Shown: piece after piece, positions 53,043-61,849 of the stretch
Layout: each line of letters opens with the position of its first letter
Numbering within the stretch: position 1 is the first letter of the stretch
NCBI RefSeq assembly: GCF_019879105.1
Contig: NZ_CP082248.1
Location: 744,001 to 808,000 of the forward strand
Origin: Natrinema sp. SYSU A 869
Lineage (GTDB): Archaea; Halobacteriota; Halobacteria; Halobacteriales; Natrialbaceae
DNA length: 64,000 bases
Direction of reading: 5' to 3'
Translations under genes and position numbers: made by a program
Notes under the pieces: generated by a model
The model's database searches: none
The model's input: the letters and a program-made list of their open reading frames with translations, nothing else
What the model was told of the DNA's origin: nothing

Positions 53043-53272
53043 GCACTGTCTAGTTACGAAATTCTGGCATAGAGCGGCGTTTTAGCGGCTGTTATGGCTT
53101 CAGTGCTGATCCCAGTAATTGTTTCACCTCGTGAGATATGTGCTGAGGTAGCCGAATTTCGGCCGTTTGTAGAACAGAGTCTCGTTGTATCAGGTTCTCT
53201 ATGGTGGTTTTACAGTCGACATCGAAACGTCACCGTCTTCGAGCCTTGCGGTTTTTCGTATCTAGACAGTGC
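53043..53272. mobile_element. 230-bp inverted-repeat element with IS6-like termini
   Basis: Ends GCACTGTCTAGTTACGAAA (53043-53061) and TTTCGTATCTAGACAGTGC (53254-53272) are inverted copies with one mismatch in 19. The first 13 bases equal the terminal repeat of the IS6-type element at 17406. The interior is non-coding. The element directly abuts the IS6 transposase fragment, replacing that gene's N-terminal half. No target duplication seen. Confidence 0.6.
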
Positions 53273-53655
53273 CCGGCGTTGCATTGTTTAGTCGACATGT
53301 AACTAATCCGGCGGCTGCGTTTCTGCAGAAATTCCGCGAGAAACACGATCTCTCCGAGGCTGAGTTTCTCGTTGATCAATTTGGCTATCGGACTGCCCTC
53401 TCCCGAGTCGGACTGAGCGGTCGGGTCACCTATGCCGATCGAAACCTCATCGAAAAGTGGTTTTATACACTCAAAATGCATATCGACCGCTTCCATAATT
53501 CATGGGTGGGCAGTCGGGCGAGCATCCGAGAATGGATTGAACAGATTGTGCATTACTACAACCACCAAAGACCGCATCACGCTCTCGACGGAAACGCGCC
53601 AGTCGAGGAGGTGCAGAACTCTCCAGTAGATGTCAGCAGTTGCATGTGGATATAG
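53273..53655 (+). pseudogene. IS6-family transposase, C-terminal half
   Basis: Starts mid-gene at VALFSRHVTNPAAAFLQKFR and continues EAEFLVDQFGYRTALSRVGL (second Asp), YADRNLIEKWFYTLKMHIDR (catalytic Glu), SWVGSRASIREWIEQIVHYY and PVEEVQN, close to the transposase at 17413-18516. The N-terminal half with the first catalytic Asp is absent. The frame is open from 53269 but has no proper start. Confidence 0.78.
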
Positions 53656-53788: not shown

Positions 53789-54616
53789 ATGACATCAGCC
53801 AGTGCAACCAGTCCTGAATCGAAACTTCGTGCTCTTTTTCAGCACCATCTCAATCATACTGAAACAACTGCATTCATCGATATCCATCTCAATGACATAC
53901 ATGTCTTCCAATTTGCCGTAGATATTGATGAGCCTAGTAGAGAACGGTTTACTGTTACGCAAGACGGTCTTGACCTCCGGAACGAAGATATTGAGCTTAA
54001 CCAGCATGAGACTGGTGTGCCGCCAAACCAGCCAAAAGACTGGACGGTCGATAGCGTTATTAATTACCTTGAAACCGAACTCAAAGCGTTTAATGCCACG
54101 ATTGGCGATGTAACCTACGCTGTTGAGCAAGAATGTCCCAACAAAGGCATTCAGCACGTTGAATGGGACGACCGCACCGATGAAGCAGATATGCCAACAG
54201 ACACTAGTGAAGAGATTGATCCCCGCGAACGACTACTTTCCGCCTACGAATACCTCCAAAAGCTATCCGATGAAGCAGAGGGCGCTGTCCCCGAACCCTT
54301 CCCCCTTGTTGAATTATACGTTGATGGCGATAAGCTCCCGTACGTAGTGGGCCCGAATGTTCATTCCCTTGACTACCATACTGATGATGAGCGTGCTACG
54401 TTCGATGCCTACTGTGACGATCATCCGAATATTGAGAGTACCGCTGCAGAAGATGATTCAATAAGCGTTACCCATTATACATGGGCCCCTGAGACGGCTC
54501 TTGATGTGACTGAGGACTTACTTGACGAACTCTATAACTACTCTCTTGACGACATCACGCACGCCAAAATCACCTCAGCAGGCCCAGATAGTGATCTATC
54601 TTGGACGGAAGTGTGA
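53789..54616 (+). CDS. Hypothetical protein, AT-rich region
   Basis: A 275-residue acidic protein, MTSASATSPESKLRALFQHH onward. No family recognised. Two predicted alpha/beta parts flank an acidic linker (DEADMPTDTSEEIDPRERLL near 130-150). No signal peptide, no membrane span, no cysteine motif. The base composition is clearly lower in GC than the metabolic genes, suggesting recent transfer. A TATA-like AATAAAATATT about 28-40 bp upstream supports the start. Confidence 0.6.
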   Translation: MTSASATSPESKLRALFQHHLNHTETTAFIDIHLNDIHVFQFAVDIDEPSRERFTVTQDGLDLRNEDIELNQHETGVPPNQPKDWTVDSVINYLETELKAFNATIGDVTYAVEQECPNKGIQHVEWDDRTDEADMPTDTSEEIDPRERLLSAYEYLQKLSDEAEGAVPEPFPLVELYVDGDKLPYVVGPNVHSLDYHTDDERATFDAYCDDHPNIESTAAEDDSISVTHYTWAPETALDVTEDLLDELYNYSLDDITHAKITSAGPDSDLSWTEV

Positions 54617-54773
54617 CAATAGCATCAGCAGTTCTTCAATCAAACCAATGCCGTACATTCATTGTAGTACTAATGTGAGGAGCGACCCCGATGGCGAGTG
54701 ACGACTATGAGAGTACTCTCACGGAGTCACGGAATTGGAAACCTATTATGACACCATAGACATTAATATAAGT

Positions 54774-55202
54774 ATGAAACGTCGTCAAGTGCTTCTCACA
54801 GTTGGCTCTGTGAATATCCTCTGTAGTTCCGGATGTATGACCCTTTTCAACAATGAGGCAGAAGAAATCGATATTGAATTATTGAATTTCACGAATTATG
54901 ATATAGGGTTAAAAGTGGTTGTTTCTGAGGATAATGAAACTATAATGGATGAAACGTATGATATTAATGGAAGATCTAGTAGTCAGAGATCAATACCAAA
55001 TATCAAAGTAGAAGGATTTACAGAAGCAACTAATGGAGATGAGTTTGATGTTCATGTTGAAATTGTGGGAACAAACCGAGAAGAAACGGGTGTGTTTAGA
55101 ATAAATTGTATTGGAGAAAAAGACACTAGGTCTGTATTCTTTATAGAAATTCGACAAAGGGGTGAATCAAAGTATATCGAATTTAATCAATCAACCTGCT
55201 AA
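54774..55202 (+). CDS. Hypothetical lipoprotein
   Basis: A 142-residue protein from ATG 54774, MKRRQVLLTVGSVNILCSSG followed by a lipobox-like SSGC, consistent with a twin-arginine or Sec lipoprotein. The mature part (NNEAEEIDIELLNFTNYDIG, ETGVFRINCIGEKDTRSVFF) looks like a beta-sandwich of the kind common in haloarchaeal surface proteins. No specific family. Very AT-rich and with codon use unlike the window average. The open frame starts 13 codons earlier, without a signal peptide. Confidence 0.55.
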   Translation: MKRRQVLLTVGSVNILCSSGCMTLFNNEAEEIDIELLNFTNYDIGLKVVVSEDNETIMDETYDINGRSSSQRSIPNIKVEGFTEATNGDEFDVHVEIVGTNREETGVFRINCIGEKDTRSVFFIEIRQRGESKYIEFNQSTC

Positions 55203-55624
55203 TCAGAGAATCTAACTCCCTGTATTACTTATTAGGATAGAAAATAATATTTTATAATATATAATCAATACACTGTTTGTGATATCTGTATTGTCAGTCC
55301 CACTCAAGACTACGTAGGTCCTCACTGTCGTGGCCGGCAATTCGTACTTCTTGGTGCCGAGTGAGGTCCCCGAAACGCCTTGAATCGCTGTGATTGAGCC
55401 GCGAACGCCAGCAAGCGCCTCCTTATAACACAGAGATCAAATGCCCTTCCATATCGTTACTCAGAATTAGAATCACTGTTTAAATTTCTTCTTGGGAACG
55501 TTCGGAATTTATATGTCTGTTTTACACTTCCCTTGCCAATGATTCCATATAGCTATTAATTTATAAACGTATGAATTTCCTCATCCATTAATTATATGCA
55601 GTTTGGATCATAATCAATGGTTGT
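55203..55624. other. Intergenic stretch, AT-rich with a GC-rich patch
   Basis: The patch at about 55290-55430 stands out in composition. One minus-strand frame in it reads ACWRSRLNHSDSRRFGDLTR, HQEVRIAGHDSEDLRSLEWD then TGA, possibly the tail of a lost gene, but no family is recognised. AAATTTATATG near 55508 and similar AT-rich motifs may hold the promoter of the secreted-protein pair. Confidence 0.25.
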
Positions 55625-56227
55625 ATGCCTTGGAATGGTAATCGCCGAAGGCTGTTGCAGTCAGTTGCAGTTGGATCGGCAGCAACTATCGGAGTAGGTC
55701 CAGCGAACGCTACTTTCAATAAAAATCAAGCACACAAATATGAAGGTATCGTGTATGACCCGGTGACGAGAGAGGTTACAGGAAATGCAAAAATGACTCG
55801 AGATCGTGGAAAAGATGGTTTGAAGGGCACTCTCAAAATTTCTGGTACAGAGATTGCGTCTGACACTGTCAATATCAAACTTGATGAACCTAATCCGAGC
55901 TCGGTAAAGTCCAACAAGGGCGTGGCAAAGGCCAATAATGGTGTCAGACACAATGAGTATCTAATAGAAGAGCACGAGAATGATCTAGATAGAAAAGGTG
56001 GTATTACAGTAAATGAGGCAGGTAATATTAATATAGACAAGGATGACCGATTAAAGATGGATATAACATCAACAACGGATATTAGTCTAAGTGGAATGAT
56101 TAAATCAAAGTGGGGTTCTAAAAAAGATGCATTTATTCTAAGTCCTAGGAATTCTGACCTAGAACTTGATAAAGATGCGTCAAAATTGAGTGAGGCTATG
56201 AAATTCGGCAACAGAGGTGATGAATAA
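55625..56227 (+). CDS. Tat-secreted hypothetical protein, first of an overlapping pair
   Basis: A 200-residue protein. The N-terminus MPWNGNRRRLLQSVAVGSAA with the following TIGVGPANA is a clear twin-arginine signal with a cleavage site. The mature part is rich in Lys, Asp and Asn (NKNQAHKYEGIVYDPVTREV, GNAKMTRDRGKDGLKGTLKI) and looks beta-rich. No family recognised. The last 8 bases overlap the next gene's start. AT-rich codon use indicates acquisition from elsewhere. Confidence 0.6.
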   Translation: MPWNGNRRRLLQSVAVGSAATIGVGPANATFNKNQAHKYEGIVYDPVTREVTGNAKMTRDRGKDGLKGTLKISGTEIASDTVNIKLDEPNPSSVKSNKGVAKANNGVRHNEYLIEEHENDLDRKGGITVNEAGNINIDKDDRLKMDITSTTDISLSGMIKSKWGSKKDAFILSPRNSDLELDKDASKLSEAMKFGNRGDE

Positions 56228-56918
56228 TATGCCTGTATGGGATGTTGGTGAAGCTACGTATGATCCGGTTGATTTCACTTATCAAGATCCGAATCCAAAT
56301 TCACTAAATGAGATTGAAAACGAATACACTGTTTCAATATTAGGATTTGATGAAGAAGAGGGCTATAATGTCGAGCCTCATGAGGTCCATCGAGACTATG
56401 ATAACAGGTTTATTGGTGTGTCACATTTTGAACACAGTAATGAATATGAGTGTGAATACTCTGGGATAACATATACAGGGACACCAAACCCACGTGAGGT
56501 ACATTACGACTTTGTTGTAGAAGAAGACAACCAACGTCACACCACTTTCAGTCAGTACCATCCTAATGACACTGATAAAGAATCTCTAGAACAAGATTAT
56601 AATGTTACGTTCGGTGCATCGATCGGGTACGAGGGGTTCTCTATTGGGGTTAGTATTTCCAATAATGACGATAATGTTAATTTCACTCCCTACGATTCAT
56701 TGAATTACGCGTTGCCAGCAAATGATAAGGGGAATCTCCCTACCGGAAGTGACAAACTATATGGATTCGAAACCGATATTGACAGTGATCTATCTGGAGG
56801 AGAAAGTGTTCAGGTCTCATTATCATCAGAATTTGACTATTCAGTTGGGTGTCATTCAAGAACTTACCTTACGACTCCTGAGGCTACTGCGTACGTGACC
56901 TTATCGGTAGTCGAATGA
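56220..56918 (+). CDS. Hypothetical beta-rich protein, second of the overlapping pair
   Basis: About 232 residues from ATG 56220 (MNNMPVWDVGEATYDPVDFT); ATG 56229 is an alternative. No signal peptide or membrane span. Acidic with many Tyr, Asp and Asn; segments such as YNVTFGASIGYEGFSIGVSI and SVQVSLSSEFDYSVGCHSRT have alternating polar and hydrophobic residues as in beta-sheet proteins. No family recognised. It starts inside the end of the Tat-secreted gene, implying coupled translation and a joint function. Confidence 0.55.
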   Translation: MNNMPVWDVGEATYDPVDFTYQDPNPNSLNEIENEYTVSILGFDEEEGYNVEPHEVHRDYDNRFIGVSHFEHSNEYECEYSGITYTGTPNPREVHYDFVVEEDNQRHTTFSQYHPNDTDKESLEQDYNVTFGASIGYEGFSIGVSISNNDDNVNFTPYDSLNYALPANDKGNLPTGSDKLYGFETDIDSDLSGGESVQVSLSSEFDYSVGCHSRTYLTTPEATAYVTLSVVE

Positions 56919-57443: not shown

Positions 57444-58850
57444 GATTCAGTACCTCACAAAGCATCCTCAGCAAATTGACGCTGGAACGTGAGTTACCAG
57501 CGAACCAGAGCTCGGAATTGTGCTCTGAAGATCTACTCCACGACGAGAGATGGGAAGTCGTCGCAGTCGGCGGCGTTCAGCCGCCGACGCGACAGCGTTG
57601 CCACTGATCGGCAGGACGGGCTCGGTCACCAGTTACCGGTGGAACCGGTCATCCGGTGGCCGATTCGCGGGGACGGCCCGACGCACCGCGAGGGCCGTCC
57701 ACGCTGCCCGAGTTACCATGTCGAGAACTCCTCGAAGGGCCACCACCAGAGGCGACGCCCGCCACGGCGGGGCGTCGCCACATACTCCCAGTGCAGGAAC
57801 CGCCAAACGTTCTGGAGCAAGAGACTCAACACAACGAACAACAGCCGTCTCGTGGGATCTTGCGTCGTCGTCGAGATGATCGTTGACTCGGAGAGACGGT
57901 AGCTTGCTTCGATCCCGAAGCGTTTGCTGTAGTGGGATCGAGTCTGTCGAGGTTCATCGATGAACGGCGCGTCGACGGCGTAGCCGTGACGCGCCACCCC
58001 GTGCTCATCGTACCGCCTGTTCTTGTAGGTACAATCGATCATCACCGGGAATTCGACGGTCCACTCGTGCTCGCCGTAGGACGTCGTGAGATCGTGAGAG
58101 ATCTCACGACTCCAGCCCTGACTGAGTTCGGTCTTAATCTTGTTTCCCCACTTGATAACCGGGACGATGTACGCGAAATTGTGCGCCTGAAGCAACGTAA
58201 GGCACTTGCCGTCGTAGAAGCCGCTGTCAAGATAGACCGCTTTGACGCCGAACTCGAAGTTGTCGAGGAGTCCAAGGAACGCAGCAAGGACGTCGCTGGC
58301 GGTGTCGCCGTCGGTGAGACGGCGCACCGCCAAGGTGTACCGCTTGTTGTTCACGCGTGCGTAGAGCGTGGCGTAGGCGTGGAACGCAGTCGTTCCTGCT
58401 TTGGCCTCGTTGTAGTAGAGGCCATCTGTCTCGTCTTCGTCACCGTAGTAGGGGCGCAGGTGGAGGTCTGTGACGACCTCCACCTGCTCAGGGAGGGTTT
58501 CGAGAACATCCTGTTGGAGGAGCGTGTTCCCGGTAGATTCGACGGTTTCGGGGTCAAACTTGGTCCGGAGATGATGAAGAACGCCGTTGCCAGAGGGAGC
58601 GTCTTCACTCTTCTCGCAGAGGGTGGATATCGAGGTCCCGTCGGCGGTCGCGCCGACGAGGACCTCGAAGATGTCCTCTGGGTCGATTTCTGCGTTCTCA
58701 CCAAGGTCTAGCGTGAATGCGCCGGTGAGAACGTTGACGAGAAAGTTAAGGAGCTGGTCTTCGTGGATTTCACTGTCCGCTTGTTGCTGATTGTTGGACA
58801 CAACTCAGCAAGCGGACTTCTCAACTAACGGCTTTGTGAAGTACTGAGTC
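57444..58850 (-). mobile_element. ISH3-family insertion sequence
   Basis: About 1407 bp, bounded by GATTCAGTACCTCACAAAG (57444-57462) and CTTTGTGAAGTACTGAGTC (58832-58850), inverted copies with two mismatches. It contains one transposase gene on the minus strand. A clear 5-bp target duplication is not visible. Size and transposase both fit ISH3. Confidence 0.85.
57633..58801 (-). pseudogene. ISH3-family transposase with a C-terminal frameshift
   Basis: From ATG 58801 (MSNNQQQADSEIHEDQLLNF) the frame runs to WWWPFEEFSTW and stops at 57713. Adding one C at about 57733 restores the usual family end DMVTRAAWTALAVRRAVPAN and RPPDDRFHR, to TAA 57633-57635; total about 389 residues. DDE residues: Asp in VVTDLHLRPYYGDED, Asp in VYLDSGFYDGK and Glu in KRFGIEASYRLSE. 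It is probably an active element if the lost C is a sequencing artefact. Confidence 0.82.
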
Positions 58851-59635: not shown

Positions 59636-60034
59636 GGAATCGGTGCGGTTTGAGTGAGTGGGAGGACGGGAGTGGTGAGATGAGGTAGGTGAGTATGGAG
59701 AGCGGGACGACAGGCGGACCGCATAGTACCGCCCTCCCACGATCACCCGCCCACCTCCAGGTTCCGGGCTGCTCGCTCGCTCTCCTCGAGCTCGCTGTGC
59801 TGTCGGGCTTTCCCCAGTGCAGGGTGTCAGAGGTTCTTCTCAAAAATGGATTTCATCTCATACCCCAGTAAATCAGCTTATATGTACGTAGGATTCCATT
59901 TCGAGCAATAACAGACTACCTGAAAGAATCCAATTAAGGCAGATAATTCCTCTCGAGTGGACTGTGCAGAACAACAGACTACTATATATTTGTCATATCA
60001 AGATTAACATAAATGAATTACAATCGGCTATTTG
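59636..60034. promoter_or_regulatory. Intergenic region with the PhoX-gene promoter
   Basis: No gene seen on either strand. The 3' part is AT-rich: CTATATATTTG at about 59981-59991 is the best TATA candidate, 44-54 bp before ATG 60035. Confidence 0.35.
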
Positions 60035-61849
60035 ATGGCGACATACTATAGCCGGCGTGGTGCACTGTCACTTCTTACCGCACTCGGTCTCGGAGCTGGG
60101 GCTTCGGCAGGGAGTGCCAGCGCTACGTCCGATAGCCACACCGAAGAAGGGCCGACCTTAAACCGGTTTGCGACAACCGTCCGCGGTGCGGAGATCACCG
60201 GAATGTTCTTGACTGACAATGGTCGCTTCTTCTTCAATATCCAACACCCGAGCGGATCGAACGAGGAGCCGTTTGACAAGGGGACCCTGGGTGCGCTCAC
60301 GGGCGTTGATCTCCACGATCTTCCAAGCGACTTTGGGAGCGTCCCGGTTCCCGATGACGGCGAGATGACGACAGTTCACACAGCAGCGGGAGAGTACCAG
60401 CCGCTCGCAAACGGCGGCGACGAGACCGACGACGGGGAGGAACTCGGGGTCCCCTATAGCCCGGACGGCAACCCGCTGACGAGCGCGAATAACCCGGATT
60501 TCAATGGGTTCGTCCCAGCTGAGCATCCGAACGAGGGATATCTATTCAGCAACTGGGAAGCTCGGCCAGGAATGGTGAGTCGGCTCCACCTCCGGATGAA
60601 GGGCCAACGTGGAAACAGTCAGAACCACCAATGGGAGGTCCTCGGGAGCGAGAACGTCGACTTCCGGGATGTCGAAGGGACGTGGACCAATTGTTTCGGT
60701 ACTGTAAGTCCGTGGGGCGCACCCCTCACTTCCGAGGAGTATGAACCCAATGCGAGAAACTGGTTCCGCAGCGGGAGCGGCGCAGGTACGATGACGTCGT
60801 ATCTCGGGCGGTTCGCAAACGCCTACCGGTACGGTTATATTGTTGAGATCGAAGAGCCAACCGGCGACCCCGAGCCAGTGAAACACTTTGCGATGGGTCG
60901 GTTCTCCCACGAGAATGCCGTCGTGATGCCCGACGAGAAAACCGCCTACATGAGCGACGATGGGACCGGCACCGTCTTCTTCAAGTTCGTCGCCGACGAG
61001 GCAGGCGACCTCTCGGCAGGGACGCTGTATGCAGCACAAGCGACACAGGACGACAGTACCGACGTGGCCGCAGCAGGGTTCGATCTTGAATGGATCGAAC
61101 TCGCCCACGGTACTGATGAGCAGATCGAAAGCTGGATCGCCGAATACGACGATCAGAAGCCGGGTCCGAATGCCGACTACGTCACCGACGCCGAGATCGA
61201 AGCGTGGGCGAATGGGAATGCCGAGGACGACCGCGCAGCGTTTCTTGAATCCCGTGCGGCCGCGGCAGCCGTCGGTGCAACCGATGAATTCCGCAAAATG
61301 GAGGGCGTCAACATCCGTCGGGATGCGGTCCCGGGCGATTACCTCTATATGGCTATGTCGAACACGAATGCGACGATGGCCGATGGGAAGGGCGATATCG
61401 CCATCGAGGGTGACAGTTGGGGTGCGATCTATCGCATGGAACTCGACGAGGACTTCGGTGTCAGTCGCATGGAACCAGTGATCACGGGCGGGCCCGACGC
61501 GAACATTTGTGGGGGTTGTCCCTATGATGCACGTCCGGACTCTGCGAGTACAGTCTGCCAAGACTGTGCGTTTAATCCTACCCCGGATGATGAGGACGAG
61601 GAGAAGAGTACCGTCGGCCGTGGCCTCGAGCGAATGAGTGAGTCGTTCGCCTCTGCACAGCCGTTCGACCCTGAGAAGACGATCTCGGAACCAGACAACA
61701 TCGTTATCATGGACGACGGGCGTGTCGTGATCGGTGAGGATACAGGCAACGAAGGGCACGACCCACCGAACATGATTTGGATTTACGATCCTGGCGACGG
61801 CGAGCGGGGGCCGGCGAAGAACCCTGGTCGCGGTCGTGGTCAGTCATAA
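60035..61849 (+). CDS. PhoX/DUF839 family secreted protein
   Basis: A 604-residue protein. A Tat signal SRRGALSLLTALGLGAGASA with cleavage near SASA exports it. The mature part is a PhoX-type (DUF839) beta-propeller, with SNWEARPGMVSRLHLRMKGQ, NCFGTVSPWGAPLTSEEYEP and FAMGRFSHENAVVMPDEKTA, signatures of calcium- and iron-dependent alkaline phosphatases. Near the C-terminus GPDANICGGCPYDARPDSAS and EPDNIVIMDDGRVVIGEDTG are also family-like. It probably releases phosphate from organic esters outside the cell. The start is ATG 60035, not the preceding ATG-like triplet at 60032. Confidence 0.88.
   Translation: MATYYSRRGALSLLTALGLGAGASAGSASATSDSHTEEGPTLNRFATTVRGAEITGMFLTDNGRFFFNIQHPSGSNEEPFDKGTLGALTGVDLHDLPSDFGSVPVPDDGEMTTVHTAAGEYQPLANGGDETDDGEELGVPYSPDGNPLTSANNPDFNGFVPAEHPNEGYLFSNWEARPGMVSRLHLRMKGQRGNSQNHQWEVLGSENVDFRDVEGTWTNCFGTVSPWGAPLTSEEYEPNARNWFRSGSGAGTMTSYLGRFANAYRYGYIVEIEEPTGDPEPVKHFAMGRFSHENAVVMPDEKTAYMSDDGTGTVFFKFVADEAGDLSAGTLYAAQATQDDSTDVAAAGFDLEWIELAHGTDEQIESWIAEYDDQKPGPNADYVTDAEIEAWANGNAEDDRAAFLESRAAAAAVGATDEFRKMEGVNIRRDAVPGDYLYMAMSNTNATMADGKGDIAIEGDSWGAIYRMELDEDFGVSRMEPVITGGPDANICGGCPYDARPDSASTVCQDCAFNPTPDDEDEEKSTVGRGLERMSESFASAQPFDPEKTISEPDNIVIMDDGRVVIGEDTGNEGHDPPNMIWIYDPGDGERGPAKNPGRGRGQS

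What the first reader, a model, noticed from the sequence alone, without database searches (positions are those of the whole stretch)
55625..56918. Overlapping secreted/partner protein pair of unknown function
The first gene has a strong Tat signal; the second starts inside its last codons, has no signal and is beta-rich. Translational coupling of a secreted protein with a non-secreted partner recalls toxin or halocin plus immunity pairs, or a protein exported together with its partner. No sequence family supports a specific choice.
Basis: inference. Interest (0 to 1): 0.55.

Follow-up and report, generated by a model that had tools for sequence, protein, structure and literature searches.

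The report
Two-part secreted toxin with lipoprotein guard
Salt-loving archaea carry a previously unnamed gene set that makes a secreted two-part protein, often fused into one, next to a small membrane-anchored protein; it looks like a weapon against related cells with its own antidote, which is still unproven.

Summary
The gene pair is real. A (55625-56227, Tat signal) is followed by signal-less B, whose likeliest start is ATG 56229, just after A's stop. No Pfam, NCBIfam, PHROGs or PDB sequence match explains either protein. Profile searches gave 45 loci in 35 haloarchaeal genomes. A and B are paired in all but five loci: as coupled neighbours (24 pairs) or fused in one ORF behind A's Tat signal (16 ORFs). 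So B is most likely exported with A, and the "B = immunity" option is disfavoured. A third gene was missed: a small lipoprotein C (window 54774-55202). A generic lipoprotein signature occurs within 1.2 kb of 25 of 44 loci (25 hits against 1.7 expected). Four other loci carry an unrelated two-TM protein D there instead. C stays intact where A/B is broken or gone, and orphan C copies exist. Relatives of halocin H4, a proven archaeal toxin, also sit beside a small lipoprotein (6 of 7 loci), but B and H4 are not detectably homologous. Best explanation: a secreted A+B halocin-like toxin with C or D as membrane-anchored immunity (confidence 0.5). No activity was tested, and structure prediction failed for B.

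The parts
55625..56227 (+). Gene A, 200 aa, Tat-exported; signal peptide about 55625-55711 (cut after ...PANA, judged by eye)
   Evidence: 43 homologous ORFs, 40 of 43 with a twin-Arg motif; found independently by a profile of the other A subfamily that does not contain it, E 1.9e-11
56214..56220 (+). Shine-Dalgarno-like GAGGTGA for B, inside the last codons of A
   Evidence: a similar GGTG/GGAG/GAGG stretch is at the end of A in 21 of 24 split pairs (counted by eye)
56229..56918 (+). Gene B, 229 aa from the likely start ATG 56229 (ORF open from GTG 56217), no signal peptide
   Evidence: 43 homologous ORFs
56604..56660 (+). Glycine/serine-rich amphipathic hairpin-like segment of B (VTFGASIGYEGFSIGVSIS), candidate membrane-contact element
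   Evidence: the most hydrophobic windows of subfamily-1 B fall here; beta moment 0.40 against a mean of 0.28, but not the highest in the protein
54774..55202 (+). Gene C, small Tat-type lipoprotein (ORF from TTG 54735; likely start ATG 54774; lipobox Cys 54834-54836), candidate immunity protein
   Evidence: lipobox Cys; two cysteines of the mature part nearly invariant
55560..55567 (+). TATA-like TTTATAAA about 58-65 bases before the A start, possible promoter of A-B
   Evidence: Sequence read directly; inference
53269..53655 (+). Integrase-core transposase fragment flanking the cassette (context, not part of the system)
   Evidence: Pfam rve_3
57713..58801 (-). Transposase-like ORF flanking the cassette (context)
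   Evidence: Weak Pfam DDE_Tnp_1, E 0.014, below the gathering score

Best explanation
A and B are the two halves of one secreted protein toxin of the halocin type, and C is its membrane-anchored immunity protein. B is translated directly after A from a ribosome-binding site inside A, folds on A in the cytoplasm, and the folded A-B complex leaves the cell through the Tat pathway on A's signal (in some relatives A and B are one chain). Outside, B acts on the envelope of related haloarchaea, perhaps through the hydrophobic hairpin in its middle. The lipoprotein C, held on the outer face of the producer's own membrane, binds A-B or blocks its insertion. Some lineages use the unrelated two-TM protein D in place of C. 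Shown here: pairing, fusion behind one Tat signal, coupling, the linked lipoprotein, persistence of C without A/B, orphan C and D copies, low-GC context. Inferred: co-export, toxicity, target and the immunity function.
For: 1. A and B occur together: 43 A ORFs and 43 B ORFs in 45 loci; five loci show one without the other (B only: L123, L146, L147; A only: L122, L131), and L122/L123 are contig ends of one genome. 2. 16 ORFs carry both domains. Fused and split forms are interleaved on the B tree: 9-10 changes on the best tree, at least 3-4 forced by well-supported branches. 3. Coupling: 24 of 24 split pairs are co-oriented and 22 of 24 have a B start codon between -10 and +13 of A's last base (L113 has a transposase between, L110 is frameshifted). 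4. Lipoprotein: a generic signature that uses no C profile finds exactly one within 1.2 kb in 25 of 44 loci, against 1.7 hits expected from distal flanks (6 hits in 357.7 kb). Hold-out C profiles find C in 9 of 22 and 13 of 23 unseen loci and in none of 191 kb of other sequence. 5. C persists without A/B: in L147 A is gone and only the last 94 residues of B remain, while C is complete at 84% identity to that of Haloferax elongans; A/B is frameshifted in L110 and interrupted in L142, with C readable in both. Orphan C: L152 is 89% identical to the C of L113 with no A/B profile match in its 10 kb. dN/dS of these two pairs is 0.51-0.53. 6. D replaces C in 4 loci, none with both, and D also has orphans, one 86% identical to the D of L112. 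7. Six of seven halocin-H4-like loci carry a small lipoprotein 45-240 bp away. 8. A/B is lower in GC than its flanks in 45 of 45 loci (mean 0.47 against 0.63).
Against: No activity is known for any member, and no toxin fold or motif was found. By profile, C lies within 1.2 kb in 26 of 45 loci (22 rows of the model come from these loci) and D in 4, so 15 loci have neither. The C fold is a broad lipoprotein superfamily: at least weak matches occur in all 68 genomes searched, so some C-like neighbours and orphans may do something else. Of 31 C matches with E of 1.2e-14 or better, 7 are not beside A/B (none of the 17 loci fetched has an A/B match). Profile comparison of B with the H4 family is not significant (0.5%, 4.6% and 0.1% probability). 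The H4-linked lipoproteins are mostly not one family with C. The hairpin's beta moment is above average but not the highest. AlphaFold2 failed for B (pLDDT 30.2).
Confidence: 0.5

Rival explanations
1. A-B is a secreted or cell-surface binding or structural protein (adhesion, scavenging, S-layer accessory), and C or D is its membrane anchor or receptor partner. No killing is involved.
For: Same gene layout; no toxin motif; C belongs to a broad lipoprotein superfamily.
Against: Orphan C and D copies and C kept beside decayed A/B suit immunity better than a receptor; the membrane partner is exchanged between unrelated families; sporadic, low-GC distribution.
Confidence: 0.22
2. A-B works like the halocin C8 precursor ProC8: one half (A) is the immunity or chaperone part and B the toxin, and C has another role such as anchoring or maturation.
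For: Fused members have the ProC8 layout: Tat signal, N-terminal domain, C-terminal domain (ProC8 as described in PMC11509114).
Against: No stand-alone intact A was seen apart from contig-end L122 and L131, whereas orphan C and D exist; no C8 family match.
Confidence: 0.13
3. B stays in the cytoplasm as the immunity protein of secreted toxin A.
For: B lacks a signal in the split form; genes coupled.
Against: 16 ORFs fuse B to A; in L147 B is the part that decayed while C stayed whole; cysteine content of split B equals fused B.
Confidence: 0.05
4. The cassette belongs to a mobile element or provirus and serves it, for example by surface exclusion of competing elements.
For: Integrase, transposase fragments and low GC around the window copy; two relatives lie on plasmids.
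Against: Three viral-contig scans found no relative; PHROGs give nothing convincing.
Confidence: 0.1

Closest known systems
Halocin H4 (halH4, HFX_5264) and its homologues
   Same: Tat-type haloarchaeal precursor of similar size, hydrophobic segment in the second half, small lipoprotein gene beside it in 6 of 7 homologue loci
   Different: No significant sequence or profile similarity; the unbroken H4 relatives are one ORF; their lipoproteins are mostly of another family
Halocin C8 / HalI precursor ProC8
   Same: Tat-exported two-part precursor, as in the fused A-B members (PMC11509114, passages)
   Different: ProC8 releases a 76-aa peptide; A/B are larger, have no C8 family match and carry a separate lipoprotein gene
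Two-component CDC-like toxins of Bacteroidota with a surface-lipoprotein immunity protein
   Same: Two adjacent secreted partners plus an immunity surface lipoprotein encoded beside them (PMC11169675, abstract start and passages)
   Different: CDCLs are MACPF/CDC-type proteins with lipoprotein signals; A/B have no such Pfam match and use one Tat signal for two proteins; archaeal
HapP (HFX_0892) protease-activated precursor
   Same: Secreted haloarchaeal antagonism precursor (PMC12893001, abstract and Results parts 1-2 of 3)
   Different: Single gene, activity in a 45-residue helical N-terminal peptide, no partner or lipoprotein described in the parts read
Tat hitchhiker complexes such as PaoABC
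   Same: One signal peptide may carry signal-less partners (PMC4273604, abstract start in the listing)
   Different: That is an oxidoreductase complex; A/B show no enzyme motif

Membership tests
Halocin H4 family | Detectable sequence similarity to HalH4 | tested here: not met
   B profile against the recalled H4 sequence and an H4-homologue profile: best 4.6% probability, P 0.0087
Halocin H4 family | Tat-exported precursor | tested here: met
   Twin-Arg motif in 40 of 43 A ORFs, the window's included
Halocin (functional class) | Supernatant inhibits other haloarchaea | not testable with these tools
   Needs culture work
Halocin C8 / HalI | Sequence match to a known family model, 76-aa C-terminal peptide | tested here: not met
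   No matching Pfam or NCBIfam model
Two-component CDC-like toxins | MACPF/CDC domain | tested here: not met
   No Pfam match in A, B or fused members; the fold itself could not be modelled
Toxin-immunity cassette (general) | Linked candidate immunity gene | tested here: met
   25 lipoprotein hits in 44 loci against 1.7 expected; hold-out profiles 9 of 22 and 13 of 23 loci
Toxin-immunity cassette (general) | Immunity gene persists without the toxin | tested here: met
   L147, L110, L142, L152; D orphan 86% identical to a cognate D
Toxin-immunity cassette (general) | Immunity gene protects against the toxin | not testable with these tools
   Needs expression and deletion experiments
Tat hitchhiker complex | Signal on one of two partners made together | tested here: met
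   A has it, split B does not; coupled genes
Tat hitchhiker complex | Physical A-B complex exported as a unit | not testable with these tools
   Fusion ORFs make it likely; no complex model possible

The most novel reading that the evidence does not exclude
Haloarchaea hold a broad class of large secreted protein toxins guarded by small membrane-anchored proteins. The A/B family is one branch and halocin H4 another, so the lipoprotein beside halH4 homologues would be the unknown H4 immunity gene. Within A/B one scaffold carries an exchangeable membrane-piercing hairpin, beta-type in subfamily 1 and apparently helical in subfamily 2, and the toxin switches repeatedly between one chain and two chains exported on a single Tat signal.
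Probability: 0.28. Interest if true: 0.82.

Novelty: new variant of a known kind. Interest (0 to 1): 0.62.

Why it matters
If right, this is a new, fairly widespread family of archaeal protein toxins (45 loci in 35 genomes were examined) with a directly testable immunity gene. Few halocins are known at sequence level (recalled), and in the library searched no paper joins 'halocin', 'immunity protein' and 'lipoprotein' (0 papers). The two papers holding both 'halocin H4' and 'immunity gene' were seen only in the listing; by title one is a general bacteriocin review and one is about killer yeast. The same reasoning points to a candidate immunity gene beside halocin H4 homologues, which can be tested by one expression experiment. 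The split/fused pairs are also a natural test case for Tat export of a signal-less partner in archaea.

Tried and rejected
Family libraries: Pfam, NCBIfam, PHROGs and PDB sequences gave no usable match. Plasmids: tblastn with the window's A, with L150 and with L171 found the two Halorussus plasmid relatives (weak for A); window B found nothing meaningful. Viral contigs: nothing. AlphaFold2 with the few permitted rows: B failed (4 rows, pLDDT 30.2); C gave an all-beta model of low confidence (3 rows, pLDDT 46.3), so no fold search was run. Direct homology of B with halocin H4: rejected as unproven. The HapP protease-precursor system was considered and set aside as a different architecture. Weak A matches that cover only the Tat signal (most of the 114 of 392 genomes) were dropped. 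37 of the 38 matches with E of 1.1e-5 or better were fetched (G248 dropped, signal only), plus loci. In the tree L146, L147 and L151 were left out. In one search the near-copy L151 was left out.

Full report
What is there. The window lies on an 881-kb contig of a 5.67-Mb haloarchaeal genome. A (55625-56227, 200 aa) has a twin-arginine signal. The B ORF runs on from 56217 to 56918. The region is low in GC (0.40 for A/B against 0.58 in the first 50 kb of the window) and flanked by an integrase and transposase-like ORFs. A profile of the second A subfamily finds only this one convincing copy in its genome; its other 13 matches there are weak and lie at the Tat-signal end of the profile.

Where B starts. 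In 24 split pairs B lies on the same strand as A; 22 have a start codon between -10 and +13 of A's last base, and 12 of these have one exactly at offset 0, in a TAATG- or TGATG-type overlap. The exceptions are L113 (transposase between A and B) and L110 (frameshifted fused gene). A Shine-Dalgarno-like stretch closes A in 21 of 24 (counted by eye). In the window it covers 56214-56220, so the GTG 56217 and ATG 56220 fall in or on it and ATG 56229 is the conserved start position.

Relatives. The window's B found homologues in 2 other genomes of 125 in its family at E below 1e-17 (45% and 34% identity), each directly preceded by an A homologue. Profiles of six rows searched 392 genomes drawn from the order: B matched in 21 genomes at E 0.01 or better. 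A matched in 114, but most of those cover only the Tat signal; 38 matches have E of 1.1e-5 or better. I fetched 44 stretches, which with the window make 45 loci in 35 genomes. Iterated profiles find 43 A and 43 B ORFs in them. Five loci show only one of the two: L122 and L123 (contig ends of one genome), L146, L147 (decayed) and L131 (a 486-aa ORF whose C-terminal part is not recognised). Iteration can drift, but the two B subfamilies align over full length at 99.3% probability, E 1.6e-20, and an A profile built without the window finds the window's A at E 1.9e-11.

Fusion. In 16 ORFs A and B are one chain; two are near-copies (L150, L151) and one is interrupted (L142). On a 40-row B tree the fused/split state needs 10 changes, or 9 if L110 is counted as fused; well-supported branches alone force 4 or 3. 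Long branches make some placements unsure. Since B follows A and its Tat signal in the fused forms, co-export of split B is the economical reading. Split B has the same cysteine share as fused B (1.32% and 1.25%; split A 0.36%; reference ORFs 0.75%).

The third gene. A small lipoprotein (C; window ORF 54735-55202, likely start 54774) was noticed beside the first relative and then beside many. Tests that do not use the chosen rows: profiles trained on the window's family find C in 9 of 22 loci of other families, the reverse finds 13 of 23, and neither has a hit in 191 kb of other sequence. A generic lipoprotein signature finds exactly one within 1.2 kb in 25 of 44 loci, against 1.7 hits expected from 6 in 357.7 kb of distal flanks. 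With the full profile, C lies within 1.2 kb in 26 of 45 loci. Four others (L108, L112, L130, L149) have the unrelated two-TM protein D within 75 bp, and none has both; 15 have neither. C lies before or after A/B, on either strand, so operon polarity does not explain the link.

Persistence. In Haloferax sp. L147, A is gone and B is reduced to its last 94 residues, while C is complete at 84% identity to that of H. elongans, which has intact A/B. A/B is frameshifted in L110 and interrupted by about 0.8 kb of inserted DNA in L142, both with C readable. L152 is a stand-alone C, 89% identical to the C of L113, with no A/B profile match in its 10 kb. dN/dS of the two pairs with missing A/B is 0.53 and 0.51 on few changes. 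D also occurs alone, once at 86% identity to the D of L112. This is the pattern expected of immunity genes. It is weakened by the fact that the C superfamily is broad: all 68 genomes searched had at least a weak match.

Comparison with halocins. The halocin H4 sequence was recalled from memory and used only as a probe; it found clear homologues (54-55% in G054 and G042, 31-33% in three more, one broken, one weak). In 6 of these 7 loci a 135-176 aa lipoprotein lies 45-240 bp away; the seventh is broken and at a contig end (judged by eye). Five of these lipoproteins resemble each other by eye and one resembles C weakly. B and H4 share no significant similarity, although the best alignment more than once falls on the same stretch after the hydrophobic segment. 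A/B is therefore not filed as an H4 member. It is said to work like one.

Mechanism. The most hydrophobic segment of subfamily-1 B is a glycine/serine-rich hairpin-like stretch at about the same place in most members (56604-56660 in the window); subfamily 2 has a longer, apparently helical segment there. A membrane-acting B is therefore plausible but unproven, and the beta moment of the stretch is not the highest in the protein. Two secreted partners with an immunity surface lipoprotein are known from Bacteroidota (PMC11169675, passages). The Tat-exported two-part precursor is known from halocin C8 (PMC11509114, passages).

Limits. No structure of A or B could be predicted: permitted rows were few, B pLDDT was 30.2, A was not tried, and C gave an all-beta model at 46.3. 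No activity data exist. H. mediterranei itself was not found: the H4F primer matched in 0 of 146 and 0 of 15 genomes.

Noticed in passing
L187:6096-6515, L188:4531-4938, L190:6195-6638, L191:6036-6443, L192:6194-6667, L193:2936-3466: Small lipoprotein genes beside halocin-H4-like genes: a candidate immunity gene for halocin H4.
   Followed up: partly
L152:4929-5300, L153:4986-5399, L155:4932-5345, L157:4989-5435, L158:4986-5444, L160:4995-5423: Stand-alone C-like lipoproteins without A/B within about 5 kb.
   Followed up: partly
L112:7256-7930, L108:7293-7931, L149:4303-4962, L130:5193-5810: Two-TM protein family D taking the place of C; matches in 21 of 68 genomes searched, mostly not at these A/B loci. 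The window genome has a broken orphan copy (G000:C3:2799823).
   Followed up: partly
window 53789-54616: Acidic 275-aa ORF upstream of C with no family match.
   Followed up: no
window 55290-55450: A GC-rich stretch in the otherwise AT-rich gap between C and A, present once in the genome; perhaps a rearrangement scar.
   Followed up: partly
window 60032-61849: Tat-type PhoX alkaline phosphatase (Pfam E 6.9e-38).
   Followed up: no
B subfamily 2, e.g. L150:5980-7377 and L135:5017-6510: At the place of the glycine-rich hairpin of subfamily 1 these carry a longer hydrophobic, helix-like segment: possibly an exchangeable membrane element.
   Followed up: partly
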